DNA from: Kordiimonas marina
Lineage (GTDB): Bacteria; Pseudomonadota; Alphaproteobacteria; Sphingomonadales; Kordiimonadaceae
Length of the DNA: 39,905 nt
Reading direction: 5' to 3'
Assembly (NCBI RefSeq): GCF_023006325.1
Contig: NZ_JAINDF010000009.1
Span: 1 to 39,905, forward strand
Below the pieces are notes generated by a model, which saw only the letters and a list, made by a program, of their open reading frames with translations, did not search any database and was not told the origin of the DNA. Shown here piece by piece: positions 1-16,194 of the stretch (the first letter of the stretch is position 1; each line of letters opens with the position of its first letter). The position numbers and the translations under genes were made by a program.

Positions 1-45
1 CTGCGGCCGAACACAGCTTCATTCACCGTCCCCTCGCAACAAGTT

Positions 46-80
46 AAAAGCCCCTGCCACACGAGGTGACAGGGGCTTTT
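46..80 (-). terminator. Hairpin terminator beside the left tRNA remnant
   Basis: An 11-bp perfect stem (AAAAGCCCCTG at 46-56 with its complement at 70-80) encloses a 13-nt loop. On the minus strand it follows the tRNA-like 3' end at 83-95 and ends in a T-run, as expected for an intrinsic terminator of the former tRNA gene. Hairpins in the same position follow the tRNA copies at 32378 and 39783. The symmetry means it could also act on the plus strand. Confidence 0.7.
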
Positions 81-82
81 AA

Positions 83-190: not shown

Positions 191-610
191 TCAAATAACC
201 TCTTGTATTTTCTTTACAACGGCTTCCAAGGACAGATCTGGAGACTTCTCGAGTTCACACTCCCAAATTCGGATGACATTCCATCCATGCTCTTGCAGTT
301 GCTTGGTCTGACGGAGGTCTCGCTCAATATTCTCCTGAAACTTGTTCTCCCAAAATGACCGACGCGTCTTAGGCATGGAGGCCTTCTTACAACCTTCATG
401 GCGATGCCAAAAACACCCATCTACAAAGATTACAGTTCGATATTTTTTTAGGACGATATCAGGCTTGCCCGGAATCCCTGCTACATTGACGCGGAATCTG
501 TAGCCAGTTCGATGCAGCATCGAACGCAACATTTTTTCTGGTTTCGTATTTTCACATCGAACCCGCGACATATTCCAGCTTCGATGTTCCTTAGAAAGTC
601 GATCCGCCAA
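191..610 (-). CDS. vsr: Very short patch repair endonuclease Vsr
   Basis: This 139-residue protein has the family's usual length and motifs: NMSRVRCENTKPE near residues 13-25, PGKPDIVL with the metal-binding catalytic Asp at about residue 51, and FVDGCFWHRHEGC at about 62-74 supplying the His/Cys residues. Vsr nicks beside T:G mismatches that arise when 5-methylcytosine deaminates, starting repair to C:G. It is the last gene of a minus-strand operon, 42 bp after its neighbour. The C5-methyltransferase encoded upstream in the same operon is the obvious source of the lesions it would repair, an arrangement well known for dcm-type loci. The family call is firm; the recognised sequence cannot be read from the protein. 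Confidence 0.95.
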   Translation of the reverse strand: MADRLSKEHRSWNMSRVRCENTKPEKMLRSMLHRTGYRFRVNVAGIPGKPDIVLKKYRTVIFVDGCFWHRHEGCKKASMPKTRRSFWENKFQENIERDLRQTKQLQEHGWNVIRIWECELEKSPDLSLEAVVKKIQEVI

Positions 611-652
611 AACCTTCTCTTTCGGGGCAAAATACCCATTTCATTGTATGTG

Positions 653-1753
653 CTAGCTCTTCTTTTCTTTCTTCGTCACATTAATTGTAGCAGCCGCAAC
701 ACCCGCAGCAAAAAGTGTTGCTCCTGGACCTGAGTTTATCTCGATTGTGTTGCCAGTAATAGATTCCATTATCTGCAAACATGCAAGGCCGCCCAGCATA
801 CGCACACCATACAGGCTAACGCCCGCAATCATAAGTTGGCCATGTTTGATAGTTGGGCGCAGAGCCTCTTTGGCCGTTTCCGTAAAGCTTTGTAATCGCT
901 TGGCCGTTATAGCTTCAGGCCTCACCTGTCCCAAATTGATTAATTCGCCCAGTTCGTTGTGCAAGGCCTTTAATTGTTCCAGCAAGTTCTCTGGCATGCC
1001 GTCAGGCGGATTGGGGTCATTGCGTTCGTGTTCATAGTAATGCACCCAAGCGGCCAGTTGCTCCAAAGCAGCCGGACCCAGGACAGTTAATTTCTTCGCT
1101 ACTTCCTGAACTGACCGTTGGCCCGTCCAAGAGCTGGCTGCAATTGTAGGCACTCCGTATTCGTCTTGGTCTTCAGCGAAACTCAGATCGCCGTCTTCTC
1201 CCAAATCCATGACATGTTGACGATTATCCAGGATGATGCGGATCGCAGACACCAGGCCACGAAGCTTGTCATCCTTAGACTGCAGCAGAGCTGACAGGTT
1301 AATTTTGCGGATTGATTGCTGTGTTGAGGTGTTTGAGAAATATGGATTCAAGAGCTGCCAGGCCACAGGGTTGTCTAGCTTCTGAAAATTACTTTTATAG
1401 TAGACTGTATATTTTTTTACTGGTCGGTGGTCGACGTGTGGTTCAGCAAAGAAATGCTTGTTCTCACAGGCCCATTTGGGAGAGGCCTTTTTTCGATCTC
1501 TAATCTTTCGTGAGCCACATTCAGGACACGATTTTAGCGGCTTGAAATCGTCCTGCTCTTCTTTTCGGTCTACAATGGATACGCCGCTGATGTCATCGTC
1601 TTCCCGAATGACGACTATATCATCCGCGCTAATGGCCTTATGGTTCTGAACGAAATTGTCAAAAACATAACGTTCGGAAGGAACATTCTCGTATCCATCG
1701 TTACCGGAATAACGTTGTGACGATACGATCAAAAGTGTCCATGCGTTAGTCAT
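653..1753 (-). CDS. Zinc-ribbon protein with probable EVE-like N-terminal domain, hydrophobic C-terminus
   Basis: This 366-residue protein has no certain family name. Residues about 25-62 (YVFDNFVQNHKAISADDIVVIR, then SGVSIVD) resemble the EVE/PUA-like fold found at the N-terminus of some HNH restriction enzymes, where it is likewise followed by a zinc ribbon. Here the ribbon is C76-x2-C79 with C96 and possibly H100. No HNH nuclease follows. Instead there is a charged alpha-helical middle and two hydrophobic stretches near 312-330 and 345-360 that could contact a membrane. EVE domains bind modified bases, so a reader of the methylation made by the operon's C5-methyltransferase is plausible, but this is an inference from remembered family patterns. 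The gene lies 18 bp after the receiver-domain gene and 42 bp before vsr, implying one transcript. Confidence 0.6.
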   Translation of the reverse strand: MTNAWTLLIVSSQRYSGNDGYENVPSERYVFDNFVQNHKAISADDIVVIREDDDISGVSIVDRKEEQDDFKPLKSCPECGSRKIRDRKKASPKWACENKHFFAEPHVDHRPVKKYTVYYKSNFQKLDNPVAWQLLNPYFSNTSTQQSIRKINLSALLQSKDDKLRGLVSAIRIILDNRQHVMDLGEDGDLSFAEDQDEYGVPTIAASSWTGQRSVQEVAKKLTVLGPAALEQLAAWVHYYEHERNDPNPPDGMPENLLEQLKALHNELGELINLGQVRPEAITAKRLQSFTETAKEALRPTIKHGQLMIAGVSLYGVRMLGGLACLQIMESITGNTIEINSGPGATLFAAGVAAATINVTKKEKKS

Positions 1754-1771
1754 ATCAATTTGGCCGCGAGA

Positions 1772-3385
1772 TTAAAATCCGCGTCGCAACCATTCAAATT
1801 CGTCTACGCCAATACGAGTTAACTTTGTATTTGCTTCGGCCGCGATACGGTGGGCATGCATAGGGTCGACATCGGCAATCCAAATATACTCAGCATCATC
1901 CGTTGTTCTAAAAACATATTGGCCAGTTTCTTTCTTAAGGACTCCCAACACTCGTTGATGTTTTGGATTGGCCAGAAATTTTTCGTATTGATTATGCTCT
2001 GCTCCAACACTCAATTTTAACTTCAGACTTTCGTCGCCATCTTTCAGGTATATGCGGAATGCATTTGTATTTCCGCCCGTACACGCTTCCAATCTCAAAA
2101 GGGGGAAATATCTACTCCCCGTAATGCGCACGGCATCACATACCGGCATTGCACAAAAATAATAGTTCCCTCTGGATTTGACGACCGACCCCATCGACAG
2201 CGTCGGGCGCCAACCTTGGGGCAAACTGTGAAATCCATCAGCTTCTCGGCTCAACTTTGATAAACGCCCAAGAATATTGGTCGTGCTTTCTTCTTTTGCT
2301 GTATCCTCATCAAACAGCCGTTTATGGGCCTGCCGCGGGAATATCCCCTTACTCACATTATGTTTAGCGTTATACTTCTGCCGAACTTCGTCTAGGCCCT
2401 CGCTCAAGCCTTTACGGACAAGTTCCAAAGGGACTACTCCCTTAAGAGCCCCCTCTTCACCGAGTGTCCCATATTTAGTATCAAACCAAGCTGTAAAGCG
2501 TTCCTCTGACAAACAGGCATGGTGTATTCGATCAGTCGCCAGAATGGCTCTAAGCTGTTGTGTCAGTACATCAAACCCGAACCCCATCACATCATCACTG
2601 TCGTCAAGCAGAAGCCTATGCCCCACGAGGGCGGGATCGAGCGAGTTTTTAAAGACAGAGAGAAGGTGGTGTGTATTTTTCCTGAGGGAATTGACGGCAC
2701 TAAGCGCAAGTGTAGGCATTAGGCCCCGTGTCAGCTTAACAAATTCCTTTACAGTTTCGGCAGGAAGGGCTGCTTCACTTATTGGTGCCGGCCCAAGAGA
2801 CCCTTGCTTGTTGAAGAATTTGACCCGAACACCGTCTCCCATCAGTGAATAAGGATCTCCTTCTTCATCCTCTAACCCGTAAGCCTCAAGTGCCTCTTTA
2901 GTTGCATTGACGCATTCAGCCAGCTTAGGGTTATCGGTATAAATAATAACTGACCTTAGCCGACCATTTTGCGCTTGGTCTAACTCGAATATTTTTTCCA
3001 ATAACTTAAGAATTAGCGTCTCGTCATTTGGCTTCAAAAACCAATCCAAAATAACAATATCCGCATTCACGACAGCGTCGGTCGTTTCCTCAATCAGCTT
3101 CTCAGGTGAAATATCTTCAGGAGGCTGAAACACCCCACACATAATACCCAGTTTTAAGTATGCGCCGACCACGGCCTGGACATCTAAGTTGCCGTCAGTA
3201 ACATCGCGTGGCCCAGCCCCCTCAACAGGAATAACTTCCAGAGGTTCATCTTCGTCCACAAGCTCCATACCGGCTTCCTGTAGATCGTCCACCACTTCAG
3301 CCACAGAAGACATTGCCGCTTTATCATCAATGATAACGGCTGTCCGTAAGAACTCTGTTGCAATTTTTTCTTCTAGATCAGCCAT
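1772..3385 (-). CDS. Receiver-domain protein of the modification/defence operon
   Basis: The N-terminus reads as a two-component receiver: paired acidic residues in VIIDD (about 20-21), a phospho-acceptor Asp in VILDW (about 114), a Thr in VIIYT (about 150) and a Lys in FFNK (about 193). That is the full catalytic set, with a larger than usual insertion between the first and third strands. The remaining 330 residues are not recognised and contain no DNA-binding motif that I can see. I chose the ATG at 3385 because GGGGGGA lies just upstream; an in-frame ATG at 3397 would add four residues but overlaps that ribosome site. It begins 20 bp after the stop of the GHKL/histidine-kinase-like protein, its likely phosphodonor, and is co-transcribed with it. 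Other names for this type of domain are response receiver or Response_reg_2-like; the match is by eye. Confidence 0.7.
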   Translation of the reverse strand: MADLEEKIATEFLRTAVIIDDKAAMSSVAEVVDDLQEAGMELVDEDEPLEVIPVEGAGPRDVTDGNLDVQAVVGAYLKLGIMCGVFQPPEDISPEKLIEETTDAVVNADIVILDWFLKPNDETLILKLLEKIFELDQAQNGRLRSVIIYTDNPKLAECVNATKEALEAYGLEDEEGDPYSLMGDGVRVKFFNKQGSLGPAPISEAALPAETVKEFVKLTRGLMPTLALSAVNSLRKNTHHLLSVFKNSLDPALVGHRLLLDDSDDVMGFGFDVLTQQLRAILATDRIHHACLSEERFTAWFDTKYGTLGEEGALKGVVPLELVRKGLSEGLDEVRQKYNAKHNVSKGIFPRQAHKRLFDEDTAKEESTTNILGRLSKLSREADGFHSLPQGWRPTLSMGSVVKSRGNYYFCAMPVCDAVRITGSRYFPLLRLEACTGGNTNAFRIYLKDGDESLKLKLSVGAEHNQYEKFLANPKHQRVLGVLKKETGQYVFRTTDDAEYIWIADVDPMHAHRIAAEANTKLTRIGVDEFEWLRRGF

Positions 3386-3405
3386 ACATCCCCCCAATAT
3401 TTGAT

Positions 3406-6360
3406 TTATAATTGTTTGCTGATCACAAAGGTGGGGGCGTTCTGTACTCCCACATTCTCCAGTGAAATATTCATGTCGATCTGATTCAAAATTTCCCTGG
3501 AAACAGCCATGCCAATCCCTGTCCCATTTGGCTTCGTAGAAAAACCAAACTCAAAGATGTCTTCAACGTCCGCAACGTCGATCCCTGGTCCCGAGTTAGT
3601 TACCCGGATGTCATCCTTGCGCACATCGAAGACAATAGTACGTTTCCCCGCATCAGAACGCGTTAGCCAATATATTGCGTTGTCCACCAAATTAACGAAA
3701 ACAGGGAGGATGCAGGATGGGTAAGAGTTAATTTTATATTTCTGGAATGCCGGTGTAATTACCAACGAAATATCATTCCCGGCCAGTTGATCCCCAAAGA
3801 TGGCTCTTACAAATTTTTCGATGTCATAACCGGAAATATCAATAGCCGACCGCTGCATCCGTCGATCCATTGGAAGGAATAGCTGCAGATAGCTCTCCAG
3901 ATGCTGAAAGCTTGTAACCAACTCATTATATATCTCTGTAAGGCCTTCACTCTGTTTAGCCCAAGGCTTTAAACGTTGTAATCCGCGATATAGATTGCGC
4001 GAATGGCCGCTAAATTCATGCTGTACAACGCCCAGCGCCATACCCACTTGCGCCCACTCCGAGAATTTCTCGAGCTTCTCCATTAATTCGATATTATGGC
4101 CCTCTAAAGCCTCGACAACAGATAGGTGGCTAGTTTCGATGTCGCCACTTAGATCCAGCGCTTCAAGTTGTTGATAGACGTCTTCCAATCTTGTAGTGAC
4201 GTCCTCATGTATAGCCCGCACTCGGTCAAGGGAAGTGTTCCGAACACTGACCAAAACATCCTCATTTGCCAGGTTCTGAACCGTCTTATGTGTATCGACT
4301 TTGACTTCCTCAAGTTGTTTACTAACAGCCAACACAATACCATTAACATTCTCTCTGGTCTTTTCCTGGAGGCCTTCCAGGGATGCCCTAATACGATTGC
4401 GCAATTTGTTCGCGGCAGAAAGCGCTTCGTCAGCCCTTTCATATACGGGCGCTAAATATCGGTCCGTAGAGGAAAATTCCACCAGTCCTTGATCAACCAA
4501 CTCTTCCAGCACTTCACCAATTGTGGCCTCCAGCGGCTTGAGGACGTTCTCTATGAACTCAGATTTCGCGGCTTCAAGGCGGACGTATGCCTTATTATCT
4601 ACTTTTGATGGCTGAAACCCCCTCGGCTTAGGCACTTCCATTTTCTTAGTGAGAGCCTCCACCTGGGTTCTTGCCGTATTCTCAACGGCTACAGCCTCCT
4701 TTCCGGCTTCAAGCGGATTCTTGATAGCTCGAATACGTCCTTGAGCAGCGTTAAACTGCTCTATTATGGCAGAGGCTACTTCATGGAAAAGCCCATTATC
4801 CAGATCTTCCTTGACAACACTGATTGCTTCTTTGAAGTCTTTTCTTTTCTTTCTGGTTCTTTCGTCATGCTTCTTCCGTATTTCCGCAGCGCGCTGTCTT
4901 TCTGTCCTCAATTCGTGATGAACGGTTGAAACTTTAGCGTCATCGCCCCGAAAATAGTCGATAGCTAGTTGCTGCAAAAGATTCTCTAGAAGCGACCTCA
5001 ACTGGCGATAAGCGAGGTTCTCACGAAACCCTTCCCGCCCCGCTTTTTCTTTCAACTGTTCATTGTCTGCAGCCGAAATTTCCACACAGCCTGTCATTCG
5101 TCGATATGAAAAGAACCAATCCCTAGCAGACAGCGTTCTTCTATGCTCGATATGAAGCCAGTCGTAATCATTGTTGCCATATGGCAAAATACGAACGCCA
5201 TCCCGGTATATATACACACCTCCGAAAGCATCCAATTTTGAGACAATTTCTTTCCAGTCTTCCTCGTCCATTCTACTTTCAACAAGGCGGCCTTGGACGT
5301 AGGCAATGTTGACTCTAAAAGGACCGCATTTTGTTGTTCCAGTAAACTCCGGCGGTGGCGACAAGGTATATTCATACTCAACCTCATCATAGATTCTTAC
5401 TTTCCCACGAAATACACCGGTTTCATCGAAACCACCTTCAAAATGGTGGTCGGCCTTTTCAAATTCGTCCGGGGTAAAGAAGCTGTGAGGACCGATCAAC
5501 TCCCTAGGCTCACCTCCGCTGTGGTGCCAAAACTCTGCCGTTACGGGAGCGGCTTTAGATCCCTTTCGCATGGTATTACTAAAACCAAGCAAATATTTCT
5601 GAATAGTAGATATAGAGCCAAGCTGGCTTGAGATCATCAGATCTAGATCCAATTCAACATTAGTCGGTTGAATCAAGAAATAGGTACCACCGGTGTCAGA
5701 CGATAAATCTGGGCCTTCAAGATTCGATATCAGATCAAAGACATCCACCTGGTACTGGTCAATTTCCCTTAAAATCCGTTGGTAGGCGGGCTGAGACAAC
5801 TCTGATTTCAACCCCTCAATGCTGCTCTTGAAATAGTCGCGGACCAGCATTAAATCTTCGGGCGCCGGGACCTTTTCATCCAGCTCAAGTATCGGAACAT
5901 CTATGTTATTCAGGTCAAGGCCAGGCTGTTCAAATATCGTCCAGTTTATAAAGCCCAGGACCGTTTTATGGGCTCCGTCTGGCCGTATAGCCCGGGAGAT
6001 GATGAGCACCTGTGGACCAATAGCAGCAATAGCTAACCGGCCAATGCCCTTTGCCCCCAAAATCGCCCGCCTTGGTAAATTCTTGGGGCCAGTCCACACT
6101 GGTCGGGTCAAATCATTTGCGGTCAGTTTGCTTTCCGTTCCAAGGGCAAGCCAGCGGTTTTCGTAGTCATCCAGAGTCATCCCAAAACCATCATCGCGTA
6201 TAGCTAACAGGTTCTTGTCAGGGAAATAATCGATACGGACTTTATCCGCATAGGCATCATGAGCATTTTTGAGTAGTTCATGCAGAGCTGTCGGAACGCC
6301 AGCTATCTGCTGTCGCCCTAACATATCTACTGCTCGTGCTCTGACTTTAAGTTTTGCCAC
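3406..6360 (-). CDS. MORC/MutL-type GHKL ATPase fused to a histidine-kinase-like module
   Basis: This 984-residue protein contains two GHKL ATP-binding modules. The N-terminal one has ELLKNAHDA (about 28-36), DDGFGM (56-61) and GAKGIGRLA (about 101-110), the N, G1 and G2 boxes in the MORC/MutL/Hsp90 style. A long charged coiled-coil region spans about 480-760. The C-terminus looks like a sensor kinase: QHEFSGHSRNL with a candidate phospho-His near 781, N box NLVDNAIYWL near 890, G1 NSGPGI near 922, an F box (FEFGFSTKP) and G2 GTGIGMAV near 945-953. The start is GTG at 6360, preceded by GAGGAG at a normal distance. MORC-like ATPases in restriction-modification operons are established knowledge; the added kinase module beside a receiver gene is the notable point. 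ATP-driven DNA clamping plus phosphotransfer to the neighbour is inferred. Confidence 0.8.
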   Translation of the reverse strand: MAKLKVRARAVDMLGRQQIAGVPTALHELLKNAHDAYADKVRIDYFPDKNLLAIRDDGFGMTLDDYENRWLALGTESKLTANDLTRPVWTGPKNLPRRAILGAKGIGRLAIAAIGPQVLIISRAIRPDGAHKTVLGFINWTIFEQPGLDLNNIDVPILELDEKVPAPEDLMLVRDYFKSSIEGLKSELSQPAYQRILREIDQYQVDVFDLISNLEGPDLSSDTGGTYFLIQPTNVELDLDLMISSQLGSISTIQKYLLGFSNTMRKGSKAAPVTAEFWHHSGGEPRELIGPHSFFTPDEFEKADHHFEGGFDETGVFRGKVRIYDEVEYEYTLSPPPEFTGTTKCGPFRVNIAYVQGRLVESRMDEEDWKEIVSKLDAFGGVYIYRDGVRILPYGNNDYDWLHIEHRRTLSARDWFFSYRRMTGCVEISAADNEQLKEKAGREGFRENLAYRQLRSLLENLLQQLAIDYFRGDDAKVSTVHHELRTERQRAAEIRKKHDERTRKKRKDFKEAISVVKEDLDNGLFHEVASAIIEQFNAAQGRIRAIKNPLEAGKEAVAVENTARTQVEALTKKMEVPKPRGFQPSKVDNKAYVRLEAAKSEFIENVLKPLEATIGEVLEELVDQGLVEFSSTDRYLAPVYERADEALSAANKLRNRIRASLEGLQEKTRENVNGIVLAVSKQLEEVKVDTHKTVQNLANEDVLVSVRNTSLDRVRAIHEDVTTRLEDVYQQLEALDLSGDIETSHLSVVEALEGHNIELMEKLEKFSEWAQVGMALGVVQHEFSGHSRNLYRGLQRLKPWAKQSEGLTEIYNELVTSFQHLESYLQLFLPMDRRMQRSAIDISGYDIEKFVRAIFGDQLAGNDISLVITPAFQKYKINSYPSCILPVFVNLVDNAIYWLTRSDAGKRTIVFDVRKDDIRVTNSGPGIDVADVEDIFEFGFSTKPNGTGIGMAVSREILNQIDMNISLENVGVQNAPTFVISKQL

Positions 6361-6429
6361 GTAGGCTCCTCATGCATTAATAAGTTGCGTAGACTGTCCC
6401 TATCATTGCATCAAGAGAATTCTCACAAT

Positions 6430-7488
6430 CTACTGTATCAGTGCAGCTATTCTCTCAGCGATTTTAGCCATCATTTTGGGAGGAACGGCATTGCCGATTT
6501 GGCATGCGACTTGAGAGGCATTCCCGGAAAATTTATAGCTGTCAGGGAATGTTTGAAGCCTAGCAGCTTCACGTAAAGTAATAGCCCGGTCCTCAACTGG
6601 GTGGCTATATCTGCCCTTCGTAAGATCAGTGCATCCTGTGGTGAGGGTAGGCGCAACATCTTCCCAACACATCCTCCCGTAACTATCAGGATATTGATTG
6701 TCTGCTAGTCCTTTGTGACATTCCAGAACCAAACGATCCGGGAGAGAAATACGGCTTCCGCCATTTTTGGGAATATGCTTGAGACGTTCCAGTGTTATGG
6801 CATGATGTCGGCGAGAAAAATGTAATGGATCTTTCAGATCAGCTTTCTGTCCGATGACAGGACTCACTAGATCTCCGATAGCATCCCGTACTGTCTCTAT
6901 AGCCACAGGGCCGAGCTCTGTGAGCTTTTTCAGATGCTGCTTACGTTTCGCCGCAACAAGAACCATCCGCGGGCGACGCTGAGGTACACCAAGATCCGCA
7001 GCATCAACTGTGTAAGCTTTACCCACATGATATCTTAATTTGCTGAGTTTTCTTGTTAATTCTGCAAAAACTGAGTGGCGTTCAATTCCAGGAACATTTT
7101 CAAAAAATATGGCTTTGGGCTGAAAATATCTGGCAAATTTAACTGCCTCCAAGACAAGCTCTACTCGGTCATCTTCGTCAGACCGCTTCTTGTTTCGGTT
7201 GCTAAAAGGCTGACAAGGTGCACAAACGGCGAGAAGGCCAATTCTCTTGGGTAGATCCGGAAAATCCCTCTCTGGGCGCACTTGAGTAATGTCTTTCAGT
7301 TTAAAGTCGACCTCCGGATGATTGAGCTCATATGTTTTTCCAGCTATCGGGTCTATGTCTACCGACGCCAGAACATCAAATCCCGCCTGCTTTAATCCCA
7401 AGGTTACAGCTCCTGACCCACAAAAAAGATCTATAGCTGTGGGTTTGACCGTCGCATTGCTGTTCTTTGAAGGTGACCGTTTCGTCAT
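6430..7488 (-). CDS. C5-cytosine DNA methyltransferase
   Basis: This 352-residue protein carries the ordered motifs of the family: I DLFCGSGAVTLGL (20-32), IV APCQPFS with catalytic Cys at about 92, VI FFENVPG, VIII PQRRPRM, a variable target-recognition region containing TLTTGCTDL, IX REAARLQTFPDSYKF and X QIGNAVPPKMM. It would transfer methyl groups from SAM to cytosine C5 in double-stranded DNA; the target sequence cannot be deduced. Its ATG overlaps the stop of the upstream XRE gene (ATGA), so the two are translationally coupled. It precedes the MORC/kinase-like gene by 69 bp. No restriction endonuclease of ordinary type is next to it. Family assignment is secure. Confidence 0.96.
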   Translation of the reverse strand: MTKRSPSKNSNATVKPTAIDLFCGSGAVTLGLKQAGFDVLASVDIDPIAGKTYELNHPEVDFKLKDITQVRPERDFPDLPKRIGLLAVCAPCQPFSNRNKKRSDEDDRVELVLEAVKFARYFQPKAIFFENVPGIERHSVFAELTRKLSKLRYHVGKAYTVDAADLGVPQRRPRMVLVAAKRKQHLKKLTELGPVAIETVRDAIGDLVSPVIGQKADLKDPLHFSRRHHAITLERLKHIPKNGGSRISLPDRLVLECHKGLADNQYPDSYGRMCWEDVAPTLTTGCTDLTKGRYSHPVEDRAITLREAARLQTFPDSYKFSGNASQVACQIGNAVPPKMMAKIAERIAALIQ

Positions 7489-7730
7489 TGTTGATTTACA
7501 CCTTCAATTTTAAACACGCCCACTTCGTTTTTGTGCCGCTTGAAGCGTATGCCAGCCCTTTCAAAGGCCCCTTGTACAGCTGCCATTGTGCGTGTGGATG
7601 TTCTGGGAAGCCCTGGTGCTGCTTCAATTCTATGGATTGTGGAAATACCGACTTTTGCGGCCCCAGCAAGGTCAGACACCGACCATTTGAGTGCACTGCG
7701 AGCCATTCTTATTTGGTCACCAGTGAGCAT
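7485..7730 (-). CDS. XRE-family helix-turn-helix controller
   Basis: This 81-residue protein begins LTGDQIRMARSALKWSVSDLA and contains the typical lambda-repressor-like HTH (SVSDLAGAAKVGISTIHRIE, about 17-36). It opens the operon, overlaps the methyltransferase start by four bases and has a strong ribosome site (GGGAGGTAGG) before its ATG. Position and size suggest a C-protein-like regulator that times methyltransferase and effector expression. A candidate operator, GAAC-7 nt-GTTC, lies immediately upstream of the gene. Confidence 0.88.
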   Translation of the reverse strand: MLTGDQIRMARSALKWSVSDLAGAAKVGISTIHRIEAAPGLPRTSTRTMAAVQGAFERAGIRFKRHKNEVGVFKIEGVNQQ

Positions 7731-7748
7731 GCCCTACCTCCCATCTTT

Positions 7749-7802
7749 GAACATTTTTCGTTCATTTTCGAGAAATATCAACCCAACGGCGAAAAAAATC
7801 AA
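7749..7802 (-). promoter_or_regulatory. Probable promoter and operator of the modification operon
   Basis: Reading on the minus strand, TTGATT (7802-7797) and GATATT (7779-7774) are separated by 17 bp, each matching four of six consensus bases. Downstream, GAAC-N7-GTTC at 7763-7749 forms a 15-bp dyad placed to block transcription, and CGAAAATG is nearly repeated beside it. Autoregulation by the XRE protein is inferred. Nothing recognisable was found in 7803-7925. Confidence 0.4.
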
Positions 7803-7925: not shown

Positions 7926-10481
7926 CTATCGTAAAAGAACGCTTTTTATCTGCTCCTGTCGACATCGACGATCATTCGCATTTGGCGAAACATCAAACGA
8001 TACTTCTACCTCGTACCCGGCAATATATTTGGTGCATTGCTCAGGTACCGCATACTTCCCAATCCACGAAATCACATCATCTACGACGGCGAAAAGCACG
8101 CTCGTCCACTTTGAGGGAGGGAGCCTACGCCGTACAAATTGCTTTAGCCTTTCTTGATGATCAATTTCTGGTGCAACCATCCACACCACATCAAATCCGT
8201 ACGCCAATGCCTTTTCGATATTGGATAGCTCATATGATTCACGGTTAGTTACCGAAACCTCCACAGCAACCCTGAGCCCATGCCCGAACAGTGCTACGTC
8301 AACACGCTTATCGTTAGGGAGCAAATATTCGACTCTCGCAGCAAAGCCATGTTTCTTGGCCTTATTGGCGATCCGCTCCTGGAGGGCGCGATGCCCCGAA
8401 GGAGGGGCTTCTTGCGCTTTCTCGAGCGACACGGGGGCTGCAGTAGCGGGCTCCGCCACTGAGCACGCTTCCTGCACAGACTCCGGTTGTGGCCCACGAG
8501 GTGTCACTTCCGGTACATGGCACACCCGCCCCCAGTTTCGCTCTCGCTGCTCAGCCAATTCCTCAGCGGTCCTGGCCTCCATATCTTCGAGGTATCCTAG
8601 CAGGATATCCACCTTAAGGGCGTAAGGTGTTTGGTTCCGAACGGATATCGCGAACTCGGTATGGCTTGAGCGCTTCTTCATAGAGAGCAGCATGTTTGCC
8701 GTCGTTCGCATATCAGACGCCAGAGCACGAGCATCTTTGTCACTGATACCACCAGCAAATTTGATCGTCGTGTTGGCAGCGAGCACCGCATTCAACCGTG
8801 GGGAAGTCTGCGCCAGATTTTGGTGTGCCATGATGAGGCCGAAGTGCTGCTTGCGGCCCTGAATGAGTAACGCCTCAATGGTCTCGTCGAAATAGTCTTG
8901 TGCTTCATCAACATAGAGGAAGGTCGGTGTCCGTTCATTTTCCTGGAGCGTGGCACGCTCCATGATGGCGTGCTCAATGAGGGACAGAATGAACCGCCCG
9001 AAGATTGCTGCACCATCAGTCTTCAAAAGATCCTTGGCCGTGCTCACCAGCACAACTGAGCCCTCATTCAACACGTCGAAGAAATTGACCTTAGACCTCG
9101 GTGCGGAAAACAGCCGGTCGAAGGTGGGGATGGAGAGTATCGTATAAAGCCGCTGTTTAATCTGCTGCCGAGTAGAATTGAACCCAGACCGGGAGAATTC
9201 ATGCTCAAAGAAACGCTTGGCGGTGGGGTCCAGCTTTTGAATGTATTTCTCAAACGGTTTCACGCTATCCATCAACTCGATCATCGTATGGATAGTTGCA
9301 CCTTTGATGGTGAGCATCAGTCGGGCGATGTAGCGGAACACAGAGCCCTGCTTGGCTGTGAGCTCGGCCCCCAAGAGGGAACCGAAGAAACGGCCATAGA
9401 TGTCCACGAGAGAATTGAACGCCAACTCCCGCTGGTGCGGCGTATAACTCTCCAGCCGGTCCAAGCCAGCATCAAACAGGTTGAGCGCAGGCGGGTGCTC
9501 AATGTCCGCCGGATCAATAATCAGTAGCCGGTCGGCAAGTGGGCCAGTCAACAGCTTCAGGCGCGAGAGCTTCCGTATCAGATCACCTTGGCTATCAATC
9601 ACCACCACTGACTGCTTGTATTCCTCGGCCTCCATAAGGTCATAGTGGATCATGTACTGGAGAAGCTGCGTCTTGCCGTGGCCGGTACCACCGAGAATGT
9701 GGGTATGCTCGAACCGGGTTTGGTCGGAGATAGAGATCGTGAGTTCCTGGTTGAGCAAGCGCCTGAGCGGTGTGCCACCGAGATAGGTGTCGCAGAGTTC
9801 TTCGGGATCTTTGATCTTCGATTGCTCCGGCATCCGCACCGCCCTGTTGGCGTGCTTGGGATTACTTGGATCACCCCCGGAAGCCAGAATGAGGTTGTCA
9901 TCGAGCTGTTCCCGCAGTCTTGTAAACAGCTCGCGCTCCTTCACCTCCTTGCTAAAGAACGCGAGGATCATGCCCTCAAGAACCGCTCCAGCATTCGAAA
10001 GGCCTCCCAACAAGCTCACCGTAAAGGAAAGGCCATCGCGGCTGTTGGGCATCGGCGCGTCATAGAGGGGATAGAGGCACTGTGTCAGTGTGTCCCGAAT
10101 GCAGACATAGGAACCATCAAAATCCTCCAGAGGACTGCGTTGCCGCTTCAGTTCCGCCCGGAGATCAAAATGCTCAGCAATGGTATGTCGCTCATCCCAG
10201 TCGACACGGGGAAGTTGGAACAGACCTTCGTAGTCCAAAAGTTCCAAAACAAGCGCGGCGAGACGTGGTACTTGAGAATGCTCGGCTGGCAGCCCGAACG
10301 CCTCAGCAACATCCAGGGCCAGCCTTGTGGCAAGCGCTGTCCGCCCCTCCTGGTCAGCCAGCCCATTCTCATTAAGTAGCCGTTCGACCTTCGTATAGAG
10401 CCGCCATGTCTCACCCTCTTCCTTGGGGCGGAAAAGACCGTTGACGAACGCATGGAATCGAGCCCCAGCATGGAGTGGCAT
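7926..10481 (-). CDS. VirD4/TraG/HerA-like ATPase with nuclease-like C-terminal domain
   Basis: This 851-residue protein belongs to the conjugative coupling/HerA-FtsK ATPase group: Walker A GGTGHGKT at about 264-271, SVVVIDSQGDLI just after it, Walker B FLYVDEAQDYFD and sensor-like IMAHQNLAQ. It would translocate DNA as a hexamer. It has no clear N-terminal membrane anchor; the preceding 172-residue membrane protein may supply one, its stop overlapping this start by one base (TGATG). The last 150 residues have RVDVALFGHGLRVAVEVS, a pattern like the Asp and Glu strands of PD-(D/E)xK nucleases, but the usual Lys is a Ser, so activity is doubtful. No relaxase gene accompanies it. Confidence 0.8.
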   Translation of the reverse strand: MPLHAGARFHAFVNGLFRPKEEGETWRLYTKVERLLNENGLADQEGRTALATRLALDVAEAFGLPAEHSQVPRLAALVLELLDYEGLFQLPRVDWDERHTIAEHFDLRAELKRQRSPLEDFDGSYVCIRDTLTQCLYPLYDAPMPNSRDGLSFTVSLLGGLSNAGAVLEGMILAFFSKEVKERELFTRLREQLDDNLILASGGDPSNPKHANRAVRMPEQSKIKDPEELCDTYLGGTPLRRLLNQELTISISDQTRFEHTHILGGTGHGKTQLLQYMIHYDLMEAEEYKQSVVVIDSQGDLIRKLSRLKLLTGPLADRLLIIDPADIEHPPALNLFDAGLDRLESYTPHQRELAFNSLVDIYGRFFGSLLGAELTAKQGSVFRYIARLMLTIKGATIHTMIELMDSVKPFEKYIQKLDPTAKRFFEHEFSRSGFNSTRQQIKQRLYTILSIPTFDRLFSAPRSKVNFFDVLNEGSVVLVSTAKDLLKTDGAAIFGRFILSLIEHAIMERATLQENERTPTFLYVDEAQDYFDETIEALLIQGRKQHFGLIMAHQNLAQTSPRLNAVLAANTTIKFAGGISDKDARALASDMRTTANMLLSMKKRSSHTEFAISVRNQTPYALKVDILLGYLEDMEARTAEELAEQRERNWGRVCHVPEVTPRGPQPESVQEACSVAEPATAAPVSLEKAQEAPPSGHRALQERIANKAKKHGFAARVEYLLPNDKRVDVALFGHGLRVAVEVSVTNRESYELSNIEKALAYGFDVVWMVAPEIDHQERLKQFVRRRLPPSKWTSVLFAVVDDVISWIGKYAVPEQCTKYIAGYEVEVSFDVSPNANDRRCRQEQIKSVLLR

Positions 10482-10999
10482 CAGATACCCTTAATGATGA
10501 CCTGCCGGGCTTCATCCTTGGGCAATGCCTCTATAGGATTGCGCACCTCACCATCCCAATGTTTGGCGCTTTCCATCACCTGACGCAGAAAGGCACAAAT
10601 GGTTTCCAACCACGCTTCCTTGCGGGCCAAGTCAACGACGCTATCACAGGTAAAATAGCGGCCATGGATGAGGTCACGAACATAGATAGTCTCTCGGTTC
10701 TGGTGGAAATACCAGAAGCCGTAACCGACACCGACGAGTACCGCCAGTGTGGCGCTTCCCAATGCCGATTTAAACATGAAGAAAAATAGCAACCACCCGA
10801 TCAAGAACACGCCGAAGCCCCGCACGGCGGATTGTTTAATCAGACCTGGCTGGAATGCATAAATAAGAACAGCCTCATCAAACCGATATCGCTCGATGAG
10901 AGCATCCTCCTCTTCGCTAAACTCAGCCTTGCCAAACAGCCTGAATGCAACACGCCCCATAGAGCCTGTTGTCTGCGAGCGCTTGAACAGCAAATCCAT
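10481..10999 (-). CDS. Small membrane protein, likely anchor partner of the coupling ATPase
   Basis: This 172-residue protein has two adjacent hydrophobic segments (about 63-78 and 82-96; GVFLIGWLLFFFMF and ATLAVLVGVGYGFWYF) between basic and acidic soluble parts, so both ends are probably cytoplasmic. No named family was recognised. The stop codon overlaps the start of the large TraG-like ATPase, a strong sign that the products act together. Conjugative coupling proteins normally carry two N-terminal transmembrane helices, which the ATPase lacks, so this may be that module as a separate chain; this is inferred from order and topology only. The region 11000-11074 holds no gene. Confidence 0.65.
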   Translation of the reverse strand: MDLLFKRSQTTGSMGRVAFRLFGKAEFSEEEDALIERYRFDEAVLIYAFQPGLIKQSAVRGFGVFLIGWLLFFFMFKSALGSATLAVLVGVGYGFWYFHQNRETIYVRDLIHGRYFTCDSVVDLARKEAWLETICAFLRQVMESAKHWDGEVRNPIEALPKDEARQVIIKGI

Positions 11000-11074
11000 G
11001 ATTATCCCCCCTCATATGAAATGCCCTCGCGCGAAATACTATCGTAAAAGATGTAACATAACTACCGAAAGAAA

Positions 11075-12265
11075 TTATGCTGCTCGCCTGAAGCCTCCTG
11101 GTGGCAATGTTTCAGCGCTGAAGGGACGGGATGGAGCACCGTCGATCATTAGCTTCAGGGAGATATGATGGTTGGGCAGGTTGACCAAATCCTCCTTTGA
11201 GAACACCGGATGAAACTCCTGAGCTAAGTACGGGGCATCCTTAGCACCGACGCGGAACGATATCAGCGTGCCTACATTACCGAGCACCGCCAGTCGGATA
11301 TTCTCCGGTATCTGATGCAGGTGTTGGTGGGCGAGAACCAGCCCTACCCTCATCTTGCGAAGTTCAGACACCGCGTTTGCAAAGCTTTCGGTGGCGAAGT
11401 TCTGAAACTCGTCTGCATAGATGAAGAACGGTCGCCGTGCCGTTTCTGGCTGGTCCGTGCGGCTGAAGGCAGCATTGGTAAGCATCGTGACAAGAAGACC
11501 ACCAAGAAGGGAAGAGGCATCTTCGCCAACCTGGCCTTTCGCTAGATTAACGATCAGTACCTTGCCCTCGTCCATAATCTTGCGAAATGACAATGGCTGC
11601 TTGGGCTCCACAAGCACCCTATACAACATTGGATCTGCCAGAAAAGCCCCAACCTTGTTCAGCACAGGGCCAAGCGCACTTGGACGATTAAATCCACTTG
11701 CGACAAAATCCCGTTCCCAGAATGCCCGCACTTGTGGGTTTGCGATCTGAGCTATCACGGTGGCCCAAAATTGCTCGTCCGCAAGCAGGCGCGACACATC
11801 CGCCAATGTGGCGTGAGGTATATCGAGAAGCGCCAGCAGAGCATTCCGCAGAATATGCTCCATGTTCACCCCCCAGCTATTTCCACTCCACTGCTTCTTG
11901 AACACGTCCATGACCCCTGAAGCAACGAGAGGGCGTTTCTCAGCGGACACGAACCTGAGTGGATTACAGCCATACGGCTGCCCCAAGTCTGTAGCATTGA
12001 AGTAGATGAAATCGTCGGAACGGGATAGCGGAATGCTCCTCGCCATGCGATCCGCAAGATCGCCATGTGGATCAAGCAACGTGACTCCTCTACCCGCATG
12101 GATATCCTGCATCGATAGATTTTCTAGAAGTGTGGTCTTCCCGGCCCCGGTTTTCCCGATAACATACATATGAGATAGACGATCTTGCTGCCCAACTCCA
12201 AACCGCCGCCTCCTATGCCTTGAGCTGGCGTTGCCGATGTATGAAACTCCTCGAAATTGTGACAT
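11075..12265 (-). CDS. Second TraG/VirD4-like (HerA-type) ATPase
   Basis: This 396-residue protein shows GKTGAGKT (about 37-44), VTLLDPHGDLADRM, Walker B RPFFIYADEFQNF and VLAHQHLHQIPENIR, the DUF87/TraM-recognition pattern of DNA-pumping ATPases. It is much shorter than a complete VirD4 protein and has no membrane segment. It lies in the same operon as the 851-residue ATPase and downstream of the serine recombinase. Two different DNA-translocase ATPases in one element suggest a mixed motor or separate roles in DNA processing and export. The gap 12266-12347 has a small GGGG-ACAA-CCCC hairpin and no gene. Confidence 0.82.
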   Translation of the reverse strand: MSQFRGVSYIGNASSRHRRRRFGVGQQDRLSHMYVIGKTGAGKTTLLENLSMQDIHAGRGVTLLDPHGDLADRMARSIPLSRSDDFIYFNATDLGQPYGCNPLRFVSAEKRPLVASGVMDVFKKQWSGNSWGVNMEHILRNALLALLDIPHATLADVSRLLADEQFWATVIAQIANPQVRAFWERDFVASGFNRPSALGPVLNKVGAFLADPMLYRVLVEPKQPLSFRKIMDEGKVLIVNLAKGQVGEDASSLLGGLLVTMLTNAAFSRTDQPETARRPFFIYADEFQNFATESFANAVSELRKMRVGLVLAHQHLHQIPENIRLAVLGNVGTLISFRVGAKDAPYLAQEFHPVFSKEDLVNLPNHHISLKLMIDGAPSRPFSAETLPPGGFRRAA

Positions 12266-12347
12266 ACGCTCATTGTCTCCACCTCAAGTAACAACCGCTA
12301 GGAGGGGACAACCCCATGCACCCAACAGCGGGAACCGGGGTGGGGTA

Positions 12348-14096
12348 CTAGGATTTCTCTAGCCAGCGCTCGACCTTCCCAATACTTTTCTTAAGCTCTC
12401 CAGGGGGTGAAAGTTCGGACCGCCGCTCTGTGGCCCCGCCCTCTGAGTCAAAACGGCTTTCAAACATTTTGAATCCATTTTGAGCGCTAAAATTCAACGT
12501 ATTTCCCGAGAGCGAAAGTTCGGAAAACACAATTTGGGCGAACGCTGCTTTTTTGAAGGAATTCGTCAAAATATAGCTGGAATGAGCGCTTTTTAGGAGT
12601 TCGGAAAGTTTCTCCAGATCTTTCAAAAATTCCGGCTCCATACCCTCTTCTGCACCCCGCATCTTGTCCTCCATACCCTGTAGCTCGTTATTCAACCTCG
12701 CTTCCTCGGCCACCAAGCTGGCAGCCTCATAGACTCCATTCTTCAATAACGTGAGCTTGTTTTCCTTAAGATATTCCAGATCTTCCCGCAGCTTGCGTTT
12801 TCGGCGTTCATTCTGCTGCTTGTGCCCTTCGAGTTGCTCCTTGAAGGCTGCGTATTCAGTCAAAGTGCGTGCATCCAATTCGGCCAATTCTCTGTCAGAC
12901 GGAATAAGCCGTTCTATAGCGTCTCCAATCTGCTTCTCCAGGGCCTCCAGCCTGTGATTTCTCACGCTATTGGTACAGCCTTCCGCACAGTGAACCATCA
13001 GGTACAGAATGCCCTTGGTTTGGTAAGGCGAATACATGCGTCCACACTGGCTGCACCGTATCATGCCCCTAAAAGGCATCTCTGCCTTTTTACCCTGGCT
13101 AATGTTCCGGCGCTTGCCATGAAGGATCGACTGCACCTGATAGAACAGCCTGTCGCTCACCAGCGGCTTGTGGCTCTTGCTATCCACATAGCCCCCACGA
13201 TTGTCAGGCACTTTGCCGATATAGAATGGATTGGAGAGGATACGTTGCACGGCTCCGCGACAAACAGGAAAAGTCACTTTCGGGGAGCGCGCCACGTCAT
13301 CCTCACTTAGCATCTGTTCCTTTGTCCGGCGTCTACGCATCGGAGGCGTAGTGAGTCCCTCTTCCCGCGCCCAGCGCGTCAAATCTGATATCCCTACATT
13401 GCCCTTAGCATACAGCTTAAACATCTTGCGGATAATCGGTGCGCGGTCGGGATCAAACGGCTTGTCATTTGACTTTCCAATGTTGAGGTAGCCGATTGGT
13501 GCCTTGTGCGTGCAGATGCCCTGCTCCCGCAAATTGAATTGAGCCAGACGCACTTTTTCACTAGTCACCCGGGAGTGGTGCGCTGCGAACATGCCATCAA
13601 TATCCATATGAAGCGCGCCCGCGCTGGAGTTGTCATATTGCGCATAGGCAAACTGGATATCGACGCCGGCACGCATCAATTTGGCGATGATGGCATCGTC
13701 CGCCTTGTTACGGCTGATACGGTCCCATGAGAGGCAGATGACGCCCTTGAAATAGCCTTTGCTCAATACCTGGATCAGCCGCTTAAACTTGGGCCGTGCA
13801 ATGCGGTACTGCACCATACCGGCGCCGTTTACGGCGATATTGTTGTCTTCCTTGAAACCAGAATGTCGCTCGGCAATCACGCCGTCTGTGCAAAAGCCTG
13901 AAAGGGAAATGTGGGCAATAGCAAAACCACTTCGCTCAGCGAATTTAAGATTTTCTTCCCGTTGGTAGGCGAGTGAGTTTTTCTGGTTGTCCGCCTCGTC
14001 GGTACTTTTCCGGTCATAGACAAGATAGTGATCACGAAACTCGCCGTCTCGCACGGCTCGCAGAGTATGGGTTTCTATTCGAGGTTTCGTTTTCAT
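12348..14096 (-). CDS. Large serine recombinase
   Basis: This 582-residue protein has the N-terminal resolvase domain with YDRKSTDEADNQKNSLAYQ (nucleophile Ser about 31), WDRISRNKADD, then EKVRLAQFNLREQG and a recombinase domain around 200-320. A zinc ribbon follows (CSQCGRMYSPY, later HCAEGC), then a charged coiled coil at about 400-500. It matches site-specific large serine integrases, which insert or excise an element between short att sites. It starts inside the preceding 86-residue ORF (65-base overlap), so translational coupling is likely. Its attachment sites were not identified, so which segment it mobilises is open. Confidence 0.93.
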   Translation of the reverse strand: MKTKPRIETHTLRAVRDGEFRDHYLVYDRKSTDEADNQKNSLAYQREENLKFAERSGFAIAHISLSGFCTDGVIAERHSGFKEDNNIAVNGAGMVQYRIARPKFKRLIQVLSKGYFKGVICLSWDRISRNKADDAIIAKLMRAGVDIQFAYAQYDNSSAGALHMDIDGMFAAHHSRVTSEKVRLAQFNLREQGICTHKAPIGYLNIGKSNDKPFDPDRAPIIRKMFKLYAKGNVGISDLTRWAREEGLTTPPMRRRRTKEQMLSEDDVARSPKVTFPVCRGAVQRILSNPFYIGKVPDNRGGYVDSKSHKPLVSDRLFYQVQSILHGKRRNISQGKKAEMPFRGMIRCSQCGRMYSPYQTKGILYLMVHCAEGCTNSVRNHRLEALEKQIGDAIERLIPSDRELAELDARTLTEYAAFKEQLEGHKQQNERRKRKLREDLEYLKENKLTLLKNGVYEAASLVAEEARLNNELQGMEDKMRGAEEGMEPEFLKDLEKLSELLKSAHSSYILTNSFKKAAFAQIVFSELSLSGNTLNFSAQNGFKMFESRFDSEGGATERRSELSPPGELKKSIGKVERWLEKS

Positions 14097-14292
14097 GGTG
14101 GATAGCGGCGTCAGCTTGCTCCAAAGCCTGCTGTACCTTGATCTCGCGAACGAGCATGGCCAGTTCGGTCAGCGCCTCGATTGCCTCTTCGGACAGGACA
14201 TAATCTTTGGGATCGATATGGGGTCGGTTCAAACCACTGCTGGAATGGCTTAATGGCTCATTTCCTCGCTTTTCCGAGGTCTCGCCAATCAT
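14032..14292 (-). CDS. Small hypothetical protein between the P-loop ATPase and recombinase
   Basis: This 86-residue ORF starts within the stop of the upstream ATPase gene (ATGA overlap at 14289-14292) and runs 65 bases into the serine recombinase. The middle (VLSEEAIEALTELAMLVREIKVQQALEQA, split over about 32-60) is a predicted amphipathic helix. No family was recognised. The tight overlaps favour a real gene; a role coupled to the recombinase, such as a directionality or accessory factor, is only a guess. Confidence 0.5.
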   Translation of the reverse strand: MIGETSEKRGNEPLSHSSSGLNRPHIDPKDYVLSEEAIEALTELAMLVREIKVQQALEQADAAIHHENETSNRNPYSASRARRRVS

Positions 14293-15572: not shown

Positions 15573-15639
15573 AGGGAATAGCTTTATCGGATATGCCCGT
15601 CAGTCTACGGCACCCTGCGACAACAAAGTAGGAGACGAA

Positions 15640-15659: not shown

Positions 15660-15743
15660 AGCATCTGTACCTTTCCACAAGCAAACGCCTGAGCTCACGC
15701 AGCAGCATGCTATAAAATGACTGACTGACCCACTGCTACCAAT

Positions 15744-16168: not shown

Positions 16169-16194
16169 TGCGCGCGAGATAACCAAATTACCTT

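What the first reader, a model, noticed from the sequence alone, without database searches (positions are those of the whole stretch)
191..7802. Modification/defence operon with two-component-like parts (MORC ATPase-kinase, receiver, EVE-like protein, Vsr)
One tight minus-strand operon joins an XRE controller, C5-methyltransferase, a double-GHKL protein with histidine-kinase features, a receiver-domain protein with complete D/D/T/K residues, a zinc-ribbon EVE-like protein and Vsr, but no conventional restriction enzyme. MORC-like ATPases in restriction-modification operons are known in the literature; the explicit kinase-receiver pairing here suggests phosphosignalling that senses or responds to foreign DNA.
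Basis: partly seen in the sequence, partly recalled or inferred. Interest (0 to 1): 0.85.

Follow-up and report, generated by a model that had tools for sequence, protein, structure and literature searches.

The report
Restriction-like operon wired with phosphosignalling
A bacterial DNA-marking operon that would normally carry a DNA-cutting enzyme instead carries a kinase and its receiver, a pairing already described in 2021 but, as far as our searches show, not yet tested in the laboratory, and the unexplained end of the receiver is predicted to fold like a bacterial toxin.

Summary
The operon is real: XRE regulator, C5 methyltransferase, double-GHKL kinase, receiver protein, zinc-ribbon protein and Vsr. 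No restriction enzyme was recognised. The core is not new: kinase and receiver hit HEF_HK (PF19191) and Response_reg_2 (PF19192), defined in a 2021 paper that already proposed a two-component system tied to restriction-modification. In 80 loci chosen by the kinase alone, the receiver is near in 79, a C5 methyltransferase in 77, Vsr in 45; the three loci lacking core genes are cut by contig ends. Kinase His781 is kept in 80 of 80 and receiver Asp118 in 77 of 77 aligned sequences. The zinc-ribbon gene is peculiar to this window: no homologue in 86 distinct relatives. Its front half matches HNH nucleases, the nuclease half is replaced, and 'EVE-like' was not confirmed. New here: the receiver's output domain, modelled confidently, resembles MazF/CcdB toxins in fold, without significant E-values or sequence support. 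Likely role: a methylation-guarded alarm against unmarked DNA. Phosphotransfer and phage defence remain untested.

The parts
7485..7730 (-). XRE-type HTH regulator, 81 aa, probable controller
   Evidence: HTH_31 26.9 bits (cut-off 27), weaker HTH_19 and HTH_3; no homologue in 80 loci by phmmer or 86 distinct loci by tblastn
6430..7488 (-). C5-cytosine DNA methyltransferase, 352 aa (PCQ, ENV, QRRPR and GNAVPP motifs visible; motif names recalled)
   Evidence: PF00145 7e-61; TIGR00675 162.8 bits, cut-off 100.65
3406..6360 (-). MORC-like ATPase / histidine kinase, 984 aa: N-terminal GHKL (HATPase_c_3, 24-125), middle part with conserved Lys439, long variable region ~480-740, HEF_HK His domain 771-837, C-terminal HATPase_c 887-968
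4018..4020 (-). codon of His781, predicted phospho-donor (HEF motif)
   Evidence: H in 80 of 80, E782 in 80 of 80 aligned kinases
1772..3397 (-). receiver (response-regulator-like) protein, 541 aa as called from TTG; the in-frame ATG at 3385 behind a GGGGGG stretch is the likelier start
   Evidence: PF19192 2.7e-29; AlphaFold2 model pLDDT 90.5; sequence
3044..3046 (-). codon of Asp118, predicted phospho-acceptor at the end of strand beta-3
   Evidence: D in 77 of 77 aligned receivers; strand 114-117 in the model
1772..2242 (-). receiver residues 386-541: output domain, beta barrel plus helix, motif C415-x4-C420-D421-x2-R424 and C-terminal E-W-L-R
   Evidence: model pLDDT 91.8; MazF/CcdB rows in Foldseek; residue counts
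653..1753 (-). zinc-ribbon protein, 366 aa: residues ~3-165 shared with HNH_2 nucleases, residues ~166-366 an orphan part in place of the HNH domain
191..610 (-). Vsr (very short patch repair) endonuclease, 139 aa, TTG start
   Evidence: TIGR00632 150.6 bits vs 97.85; PF03852 1.1e-29
44..82 (-). strong 17-pair stem-loop after Vsr, possible transcription terminator
   Evidence: not listed by the scan, which wants a T run after the stem, whereas here the T run lies inside the stem

Best explanation
A restriction-modification-like guard system whose restriction subunit has been replaced by phosphosignalling. The C5 methyltransferase marks the cell's own DNA. The 984-aa protein joins an N-terminal MORC/MutL-type GHKL ATPase, which probably clamps DNA, to a soluble histidine kinase. 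When it meets DNA without the mark, ATP-driven closing of the N-terminal half turns on the C-terminal kinase, His781 is phosphorylated and the phosphate passes to Asp118 of the receiver. This frees or activates the receiver's conserved output domain, which acts as the executor. Vsr is an accessory, probably for repair of deaminated 5-methylcytosine, and the zinc-ribbon protein a local DNA-reading add-on. Shown: gene content, domain assignments, near-universal MTase-kinase-receiver linkage in the loci sampled, invariant active residues, a predicted output fold. Inferred: DNA sensing, phosphotransfer, what the output domain does, and the defence role.
For: Obligate trio: receiver in 79 and MTase in 77 of 80 kinase-selected loci, the exceptions (L027, L071, L101) being at contig ends; in the receiver-selected sample MTase in 10 of 10, four of them repeats. 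Of 48 loci with at least 4.5 kb on both sides of the kinase, 19 have no Vsr, so the trio must suffice there or use other executors. Active residues: H781 80/80, E782 80/80, N890/D893/N894 80/80 in the C-terminal ATPase, E28 80/80 in the N-terminal one; D24 77/77, D118 77/77, T154 74/77 (3 Ser), K197 76/77 (1 gap). Partner signal: in 73 loci plus the window, REC distances follow the kinase's DHp best (rho 0.61), better than the receiver's own helical (0.52) or output (0.45) parts; partial Mantel DHp-REC 0.21, P 0.001, against CA-REC -0.03, P 0.77; DHp x REC gives 22 of the top 100 inter-protein pairs, expected 6.1. The N-terminal GHKL resembles BbrUII/HgiDII restriction enzymes (1.4e-15), HtpG and MutL (1e-4 to 9e-4). 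Nine of 20 loci found in contigs classed as viral have a near-full-length kinase, each with receiver and MTase (two of the nine are 99.9% alike).
Against: No experiment. PADLOC-DB 2.0.0 gave only weak type II REase hits, to the kinase's N-terminus (2.9e-9, 8.3e-5) and to receiver residues 489-529 (0.017), and no model of its own for either. No direct evidence that the kinase binds DNA; MTase target-recognition distances do not follow the N-terminal GHKL (partial -0.08, P 0.94), only weakly the middle part and the CA domain (0.11 and 0.10, P 0.022 each), and follow DHp most (0.22, P 0.001), which this model does not predict. Co-variation rests on 74 sequences (weighted 50) without full removal of phylogeny, the top pairs are not obvious contacts, and other region pairs are mildly enriched too (CA x output 12 vs 7.3, DHp x output 10 vs 5.7, DHp x helical 10 vs 5.5). 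The C-terminal ATPase has N instead of D at the start of its G1 box in 46 of 80 sequences.
Confidence: 0.45

Rival explanations
1. Signalling without killing: the kinase-receiver pair reads DNA methylation or stress and regulates gene expression, perhaps that of the restriction-modification genes, with the output barrel as a nucleic-acid or protein binder. This is close to the 2021 authors' suggestion.
For: Two-component pairs usually regulate transcription (general knowledge); the 2021 paper started from genes induced in Pectobacterium on potato and speculates on signalling that controls R-M systems.
Against: No DNA-binding family found in the receiver (Pfam, NCBIfam, PHROGs); linkage to a methyltransferase in 77 of 80 loci and presence on contigs classed as viral fit conflict systems better.
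Confidence: 0.2
2. A MutL/MORC-style restriction machine: kinase and receiver form a DNA-bound complex that recruits a nuclease (Vsr, HNH or OLD-type where present, host nucleases elsewhere); phosphate is at most a conformational switch.
For: Vsr in 45 of 80 loci; HNH, OLD-like and one EcoRII-C neighbour in some; the literature links MutL with Vsr and MORC genes with Vsr genes (PMC2292703, passages); L162 and L164 hold a single-GHKL ATPase with Vsr and MTase, L161 a double one, all without receiver.
Against: 19 of 48 loci with full context lack Vsr; strict conservation of the full phosphotransfer set is unexpected if phosphate is not used.
Confidence: 0.2
3. Methyltransferase plus Vsr as an orphan modification/repair pair, with kinase and receiver as unrelated passengers.
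For: Vsr genes accompany C5 methyltransferases as V genes (PMC8011034).
Against: MTase-kinase-receiver linkage in all but three of 80 loci, those three being cut by contig ends.
Confidence: 0.03

Closest known systems
HEF_HK / Response_reg_2 two-component-like system (Bellieny-Rabelo et al. 2021, PMC8011034)
   Same: Same two Pfam domains over cut-off, adjacent genes, C5 methyltransferase upstream, Vsr nearby, soluble kinase with two ATPase domains, complete His and Asp sites.
   Different: The window adds a zinc-ribbon gene between receiver and Vsr, and an XRE gene. The paper reports no other known domain in the receivers and its main text does not contain zinc, EVE or PUA; its search was limited to bacteria. 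We add the output-domain fold, the co-variation and four records titled as archaeal MAGs (L047, L065, L076, L083).
MORC / paraMORC GHKL ATPases of R-M operons (Iyer et al. 2008, PMC2292703)
   Same: N-terminal GHKL ATPase in a C5-MTase/Vsr operon.
   Different: C-terminal kinase half (HEF_HK + HATPase_c) instead of nuclease or helicase partners; the word 'receiver' does not occur in the paper's text.
BbrUII/HgiDII-type restriction enzymes with N-terminal ATPase domain
   Same: Residues 3-123 match NF050001 (1.4e-15); the gene sits where a restriction gene would.
   Different: Match far below the family cut-off (56.9 vs 550 bits); no nuclease part recognised.
EVE-HNH modification-dependent nucleases such as VcaM4I (PMC7897488, abstract and passages)
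   Same: The zinc-ribbon protein shares its front half with HNH_2 nucleases found near restriction genes: McrBC (L107), C5 MTase plus type II REase (L109), Vsr, MTase and an NgoMIV-type gene (L110), a restriction endonuclease (L108).
   Different: HNH part missing; EVE identity not supported.
MazF/CcdB toxin fold
   Same: Output-domain model: 9 of the 50 PDB rows shown are MazF or CcdB, target-normalised TM 0.48-0.62; the other 41 rows reach at most 0.25.
   Different: No E-value at or below 0.001; no sequence-profile support; conserved residues are C415/C420/D421/R424, not an obvious MazF active site (MazF residues recalled; no structural superposition was available).
Detocs (phage-defence system with histidine kinase and receiver; recalled, no record compared here)
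   Same: Kinase-receiver relay used for defence.
   Different: No methyltransferase or MORC-like ATPase in it as recalled; not tested.

Membership tests
HEF_HK/Response_reg_2 system (PMC8011034) | HEF_HK domain over cut-off with invariant His-Glu | tested here: met
   79.4 bits vs 24.1; H781, E782 80/80
HEF_HK/Response_reg_2 system (PMC8011034) | Response_reg_2 over cut-off with D/D, D, T, K | tested here: met
   103 bits vs 27; counts
HEF_HK/Response_reg_2 system (PMC8011034) | Genes adjacent, C5 methyltransferase nearby | tested here: met
   relatives
HEF_HK/Response_reg_2 system (PMC8011034) | His-to-Asp phosphotransfer | not testable with these tools
   only conservation and co-variation; no such experiment in parts 1-5 of 7 of the 2021 paper
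Type II restriction-modification | DNA methyltransferase | tested here: met
Type II restriction-modification | cognate restriction endonuclease | tested here: not met
   no REase family over a curated cut-off in the operon; PADLOC gives weak REase_II hits to kinase and receiver only; sequence beyond position 1 not available
MORC/paraMORC ATPases | N-terminal GHKL ATPase with intact motifs | tested here: met
   PF13589 51.6 bits vs 25; E28, N32, D35, D56, G58, G60, G102, K104, G105, G107 in 80/80, partly by construction because the search patterns include some of them
MORC/paraMORC ATPases | S5 domain after the GHKL domain | tested here: inconclusive
   K439, G441, R442 invariant, but no S5 fold test was run
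Canonical two-component system | HisKA-type DHp (PF00512 and kin) and REC PF00072 | tested here: not met
   neither listed at E up to 1; [quoted passage not shown]
Vsr endonuclease | TIGR00632 over cut-off | tested here: met
   150.6 vs 97.85 bits
EVE domain protein | PF01878 or profile match to EVE | tested here: not met
   no Pfam hit; hhalign probability 0.4%, E 0.14; a small profile of 6 sequences, so a remote relation is not excluded
Modification-dependent HNH nuclease | HNH catalytic domain | tested here: not met
   HNH_2 hit in 3 of 3 relatives scanned (L106, L107, L110), absent in the window protein
MazF/PemK toxin | sequence family PF02452 | tested here: not met
   no Pfam hit; hhalign no match, with only 3 MazF sequences
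MazF/PemK toxin | MazF/CcdB barrel fold | tested here: inconclusive
   TM 0.48-0.62 by target, probability 0.54-0.97, E 0.08 and up; PemK/MazF also in BFVD, TM 0.57, E 0.23

The most novel reading that the evidence does not exclude
A methylation-guarded phosphorelay toxin: unmarked DNA caught by a MORC-like clamp triggers a histidine kinase, and the receiver's MazF/CcdB-fold output domain, a barrel with its own C-x4-CD-x2-R site, stops the infected cell by attacking RNA, topoisomerase or another target. It would be a restriction-modification system in which the cutter is replaced by a two-component switch on a suicide effector.
Probability: 0.2. Interest if true: 0.88.

Novelty: new variant of a known kind. 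Interest (0 to 1): 0.55.

Why it matters
The trio MTase-kinase-receiver turns up in records from many bacterial phyla and a few archaea, yet the rows our literature searches listed show no functional test. If it works as inferred, it links two-component signalling to DNA self/non-self recognition, and the output fold gives a first guess at what the receiver does. Loci with only the three core genes make the question testable in one laboratory strain with two point changes, H781 and D118.

Tried and rejected
Vsr as the indispensable nuclease: rejected, since 35 of 80 loci lack it nearby, 19 of them among the 48 with at least 4.5 kb on both sides of the kinase. Zinc-ribbon protein as a conserved component: rejected; no homologue by phmmer in 80 loci, by blastp against a reduced ORF set of 10 loci, or by tblastn in 86 distinct loci plus nine viral-contig loci. 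Elsewhere it matched 2 of 398 genomes beside its own and 6 plasmids, none over more than 60% of its length. EVE identity: not supported. Orphan C-terminal part of that protein: 17 weak hits at E 0.006-0.084 in 289 genomes, no more than chance gives; one moderately hydrophobic stretch at about 307-326, no conclusion. Its relatives in viral contigs: none confirmed. Full-length receiver fold search: the top rows are GPCRs and other mismatches; among the 50 shown, 4dad is the clear receiver-like match (TM by target 0.66). MazF homology at sequence level: none; most 'MazF' sequences were wrongly extracted, so that comparison is void, and one search used only 3. In the viral library the best row by E-value (1.4e-3, a Clandestinovirus protein) is not MazF, but its TM by target is 0.15. 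Output domain in other contexts: 10 of 396 genomes match; nine are genomes with receivers known, and one (L177) is a 376-aa frame, with a stop inside, that starts near a contig start and was not examined; two receivers (G287, G382) were too divergent to match. Residue contacts from co-variation: not resolved. My notebook names Asp113 as the acceptor; the strand position shows it is Asp118, and the report uses that. Rows left out of alignments: receivers under 450 aa (L029, L063, L071) and L101, which has no receiver.
Full report
What is there. Pfam and NCBIfam assign the XRE gene (just under cut-off), the C5 methyltransferase, the kinase (HATPase_c_3, HEF_HK, HATPase_c), the receiver (Response_reg_2) and Vsr; the 366-aa zinc-ribbon protein has no family over a cut-off. 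No restriction endonuclease family is over a curated cut-off in the operon. PADLOC gives weak type II REase hits to the kinase's N-terminal ATPase (2.9e-9, 8.3e-5) and to receiver residues 489-529 (0.017), and nothing of its own for either protein. After Vsr a strong stem-loop at 44-82 may end the operon, 43 bases before the contig edge.

It is already a described kind. PF19191 and PF19192 come from Bellieny-Rabelo et al. 2021 (PMC8011034; parts 1-5 of 7 of the text read, plus a term search). They report 91.6% linkage of the two genes in 644 regions, enrichment of C5 methyltransferases, Vsr genes in 20 genera, and a relation to paraMORC ATPases, and they propose a two-component-like system. 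The MORC link to R-M operons goes back to Iyer et al. 2008 (PMC2292703, passages).

Neighbourhood test. With the kinase alignment, 80 named loci were taken, the best of 548 relatives, so the sample leans towards close relatives, and some N-terminal ATPase motifs are selected by the search patterns. The order MTase-kinase-receiver dominates. By profile, within about 4.5 kb, the receiver is near the kinase in 79 of 80, a C5 methyltransferase in 77, Vsr in 45; the loci lacking MTase or receiver (L027, L071, L101) are cut by contig ends. Of the 48 loci with at least 4.5 kb on both sides, 19 have no Vsr. A second sample came from searching 398 genomes of the same phylum for Response_reg_2: 11 matched, the window's own and ten others. 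An MTase is near in 10 of those 10 and Vsr in 6 (the receiver profile missed L021, which Pfam had found); four of the ten are the same records as four of the 80, so six are new. Four of the 80 records are archaeal by title, all MAGs, where mis-binning is possible. In contigs classed as viral, 20 loci were returned; nine carry a near-full-length kinase, each with receiver and methyltransferase; two of the nine are 99.9% alike and one (L152) has the receiver in two frames.

The zinc-ribbon and XRE genes are not conserved parts: tblastn finds neither in 86 distinct loci or the nine viral-contig loci. Residues 3-165 of the zinc-ribbon protein match the front half of HNH_2 nucleases in two genomes (L106, L107) and of proteins on six actinobacterial plasmids, also phrog_21425. 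Those examined lie beside McrBC genes (L107), beside a C5 methyltransferase and type II restriction gene (Paenarthrobacter), beside a restriction endonuclease (Rhodococcus sp. PD04), or two genes from Vsr, methyltransferase and NgoMIV-type genes (R. antarcticus); for L106 I saw no such neighbour by eye in the ORFs listed, which were not scanned. In the window the HNH half is replaced by an orphan part. A DNA-reading role is therefore likely, but the EVE label failed its test: probability 0.4%, although the single weak alignment falls on a plausible motif.

Other accessories vary. Of 108 flanking genes inside or within 300 bases of the cassettes, the 66 on the kinase's strand were scanned: five have OLD-like AAA_15 domains, two HNH, one EcoRII-C, among 59 families of which 25 were shown. 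A recurring cluster of six genes was sampled twice and is HNH-type (L064, L078). The 25 PADLOC families shown for these flanks are mostly ATPases.

Kinase and receiver residues. In 80 kinases (window plus 79) His781 and Glu782 never vary; the C-terminal ATPase keeps N890, D893 and N894, though its G1 box starts with N in 46 and D in 33. In 77 receivers (window plus 76) D24, D118, G403, C415 and C420 never vary, D25 is D in 65 and N in 12, T154 is T in 74 and S in 3, K197 is K in 76 with one gap, D421 is D in 74 and E in 3, R424 is R in 76. Among the 11 aligned from the receiver-selected sample, C420 and D421 are kept in 11 of 11, C415 is lost in one, and R424 is not at that column in five.

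Do kinase and receiver evolve as partners? In 74 sets with all three genes (73 loci and the window), pairwise distances of the REC part correlate best with the kinase's DHp part (rho 0.61), and so do those of the output domain (0.60). With all other regions held constant, DHp-REC is 0.21 and DHp-output 0.32, both P 0.001 by permutation, while CA-REC is -0.03 (P 0.77). Ten of 55 region pairs were put to the permutation test, without correction. In a residue-level scan of kinase residues 480-975 against the receiver, DHp x REC holds 22 of the top 100 inter-protein pairs against 6.1 expected; other pairs with DHp or CA are up to about 1.8 times enriched, and preDHp x REC has 3 against 1.2. This supports partnership; it does not prove phosphotransfer, and phylogeny is not fully removed. 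Unexpectedly, the methyltransferase's target region also follows DHp (0.22, P 0.001) and not the N-terminal ATPase (-0.08, P 0.94).

The receiver's output. AlphaFold2 with 77 sequences gives a confident model (pLDDT 90.5): receiver domain, helical middle 210-381, beta domain 404-510 with a last helix 512-526. The whole model finds no convincing relative beyond a receiver-like domain in the 50 rows shown. The beta domain alone (residues 386-541, pLDDT 91.8) ranks MazF first in the PDB; nine of the 50 rows shown are MazF or CcdB with TM 0.48-0.62 by target, the other 41 at most 0.25, but no E-value reaches 0.001 (best 0.08). In the viral library the only two of 50 rows above 0.35 are an 'Endoribonuclease' (0.36) and a PemK/MazF toxin (0.57), although the first row by E-value is a protein with TM 0.15. 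Sequence profiles give no support. So the fold resemblance is suggestive; membership is not claimed. The conserved C415-x4-C420-D421-x2-R424 and the tail E-W-L-R (E535 73, W536 59, L537 59, R538 74 of 77) do not look like the MazF catalytic pair as I recall it. In 396 genomes the domain was seen only in genomes with receivers and in one unexamined frame near a contig start.

Mechanism. The most economical reading is a guard system: methylation marks self, the MORC-like ATPase senses unmarked DNA, a His-Asp relay passes the alarm, and the receiver's output domain acts. Steps shown: gene content, linkage, residues, predicted folds. Steps inferred: sensing, phosphotransfer, effector action, phage defence. 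Loci with full context and no Vsr argue that the executor is the receiver, a host protein or a varying accessory. The bold version, a toxin-fold executor, is kept as the novel case at 0.2.

Verdict. The window is a variant with an unusual zinc-ribbon gene. The interest lies in a widespread, apparently untested system with a newly suggested effector fold.

Noticed in passing
window 7926-22078: Mobile-element genes beside the operon: two TraD/HerA-like ATPases (7926-10481, 11075-12265), a large serine recombinase (12348-14096) and a tyrosine integrase (21458-22078).
   Followed up: partly
window 17066-21220: A 1384-aa ORF with no Pfam match at E up to 0.01 and no PHROGs match at E up to 0.001, inside the same mobile stretch.
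   Followed up: no
window 22479-28558: Lower-GC block (about 0.42-0.48) with a myo-inositol-1-phosphate synthase-like gene, a methyltransferase and an ABC transporter with a periplasmic binding protein.
   Followed up: no
window 28610-39859: A recombinase fragment, a second serine recombinase (30748-32421), a second integrase (32553-33764) and a tRNA-Met at 39783-39859.
   Followed up: no
L107 2966-8479: McrBC genes next to the zinc-ribbon/HNH_2 relative and a 300-aa glycine-rich, possibly membrane-associated protein.
   Followed up: partly
L161 7493-10220, L163 7590-9980: Proteins on viral-class contigs with two GHKL ATPase domains but no HEF_HK match; L161 has Vsr adjacent. They may be intermediates between paraMORC and the kinase.
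   Followed up: no
L033, L035, L049, L073, L077, L092: A recurring OLD-like AAA ATPase gene just downstream of the receiver, in six loci whose titles all name Bacteroidota groups; on the opposite strand in L092; two full-length copies and a short one were scanned.
   Followed up: partly
window 1772-3397, receiver residues ~28-70: A long low-confidence stretch between strand 1 and helix 1 of the receiver domain, next to the acidic pocket.
   Followed up: no
L165 767-2536: GHKL ATPase on a viral-class contig with a weak Shedu (SduA_C) C-terminal match, below cut-off.
   Followed up: no
window 653-1753, residues 39-100: Weak NCBIfam match of the zinc-ribbon region to NAD-dependent DNA ligase LigA (E 0.0022, 16.6 vs 369 bits), probably only a shared zinc-finger pattern.
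   Followed up: no
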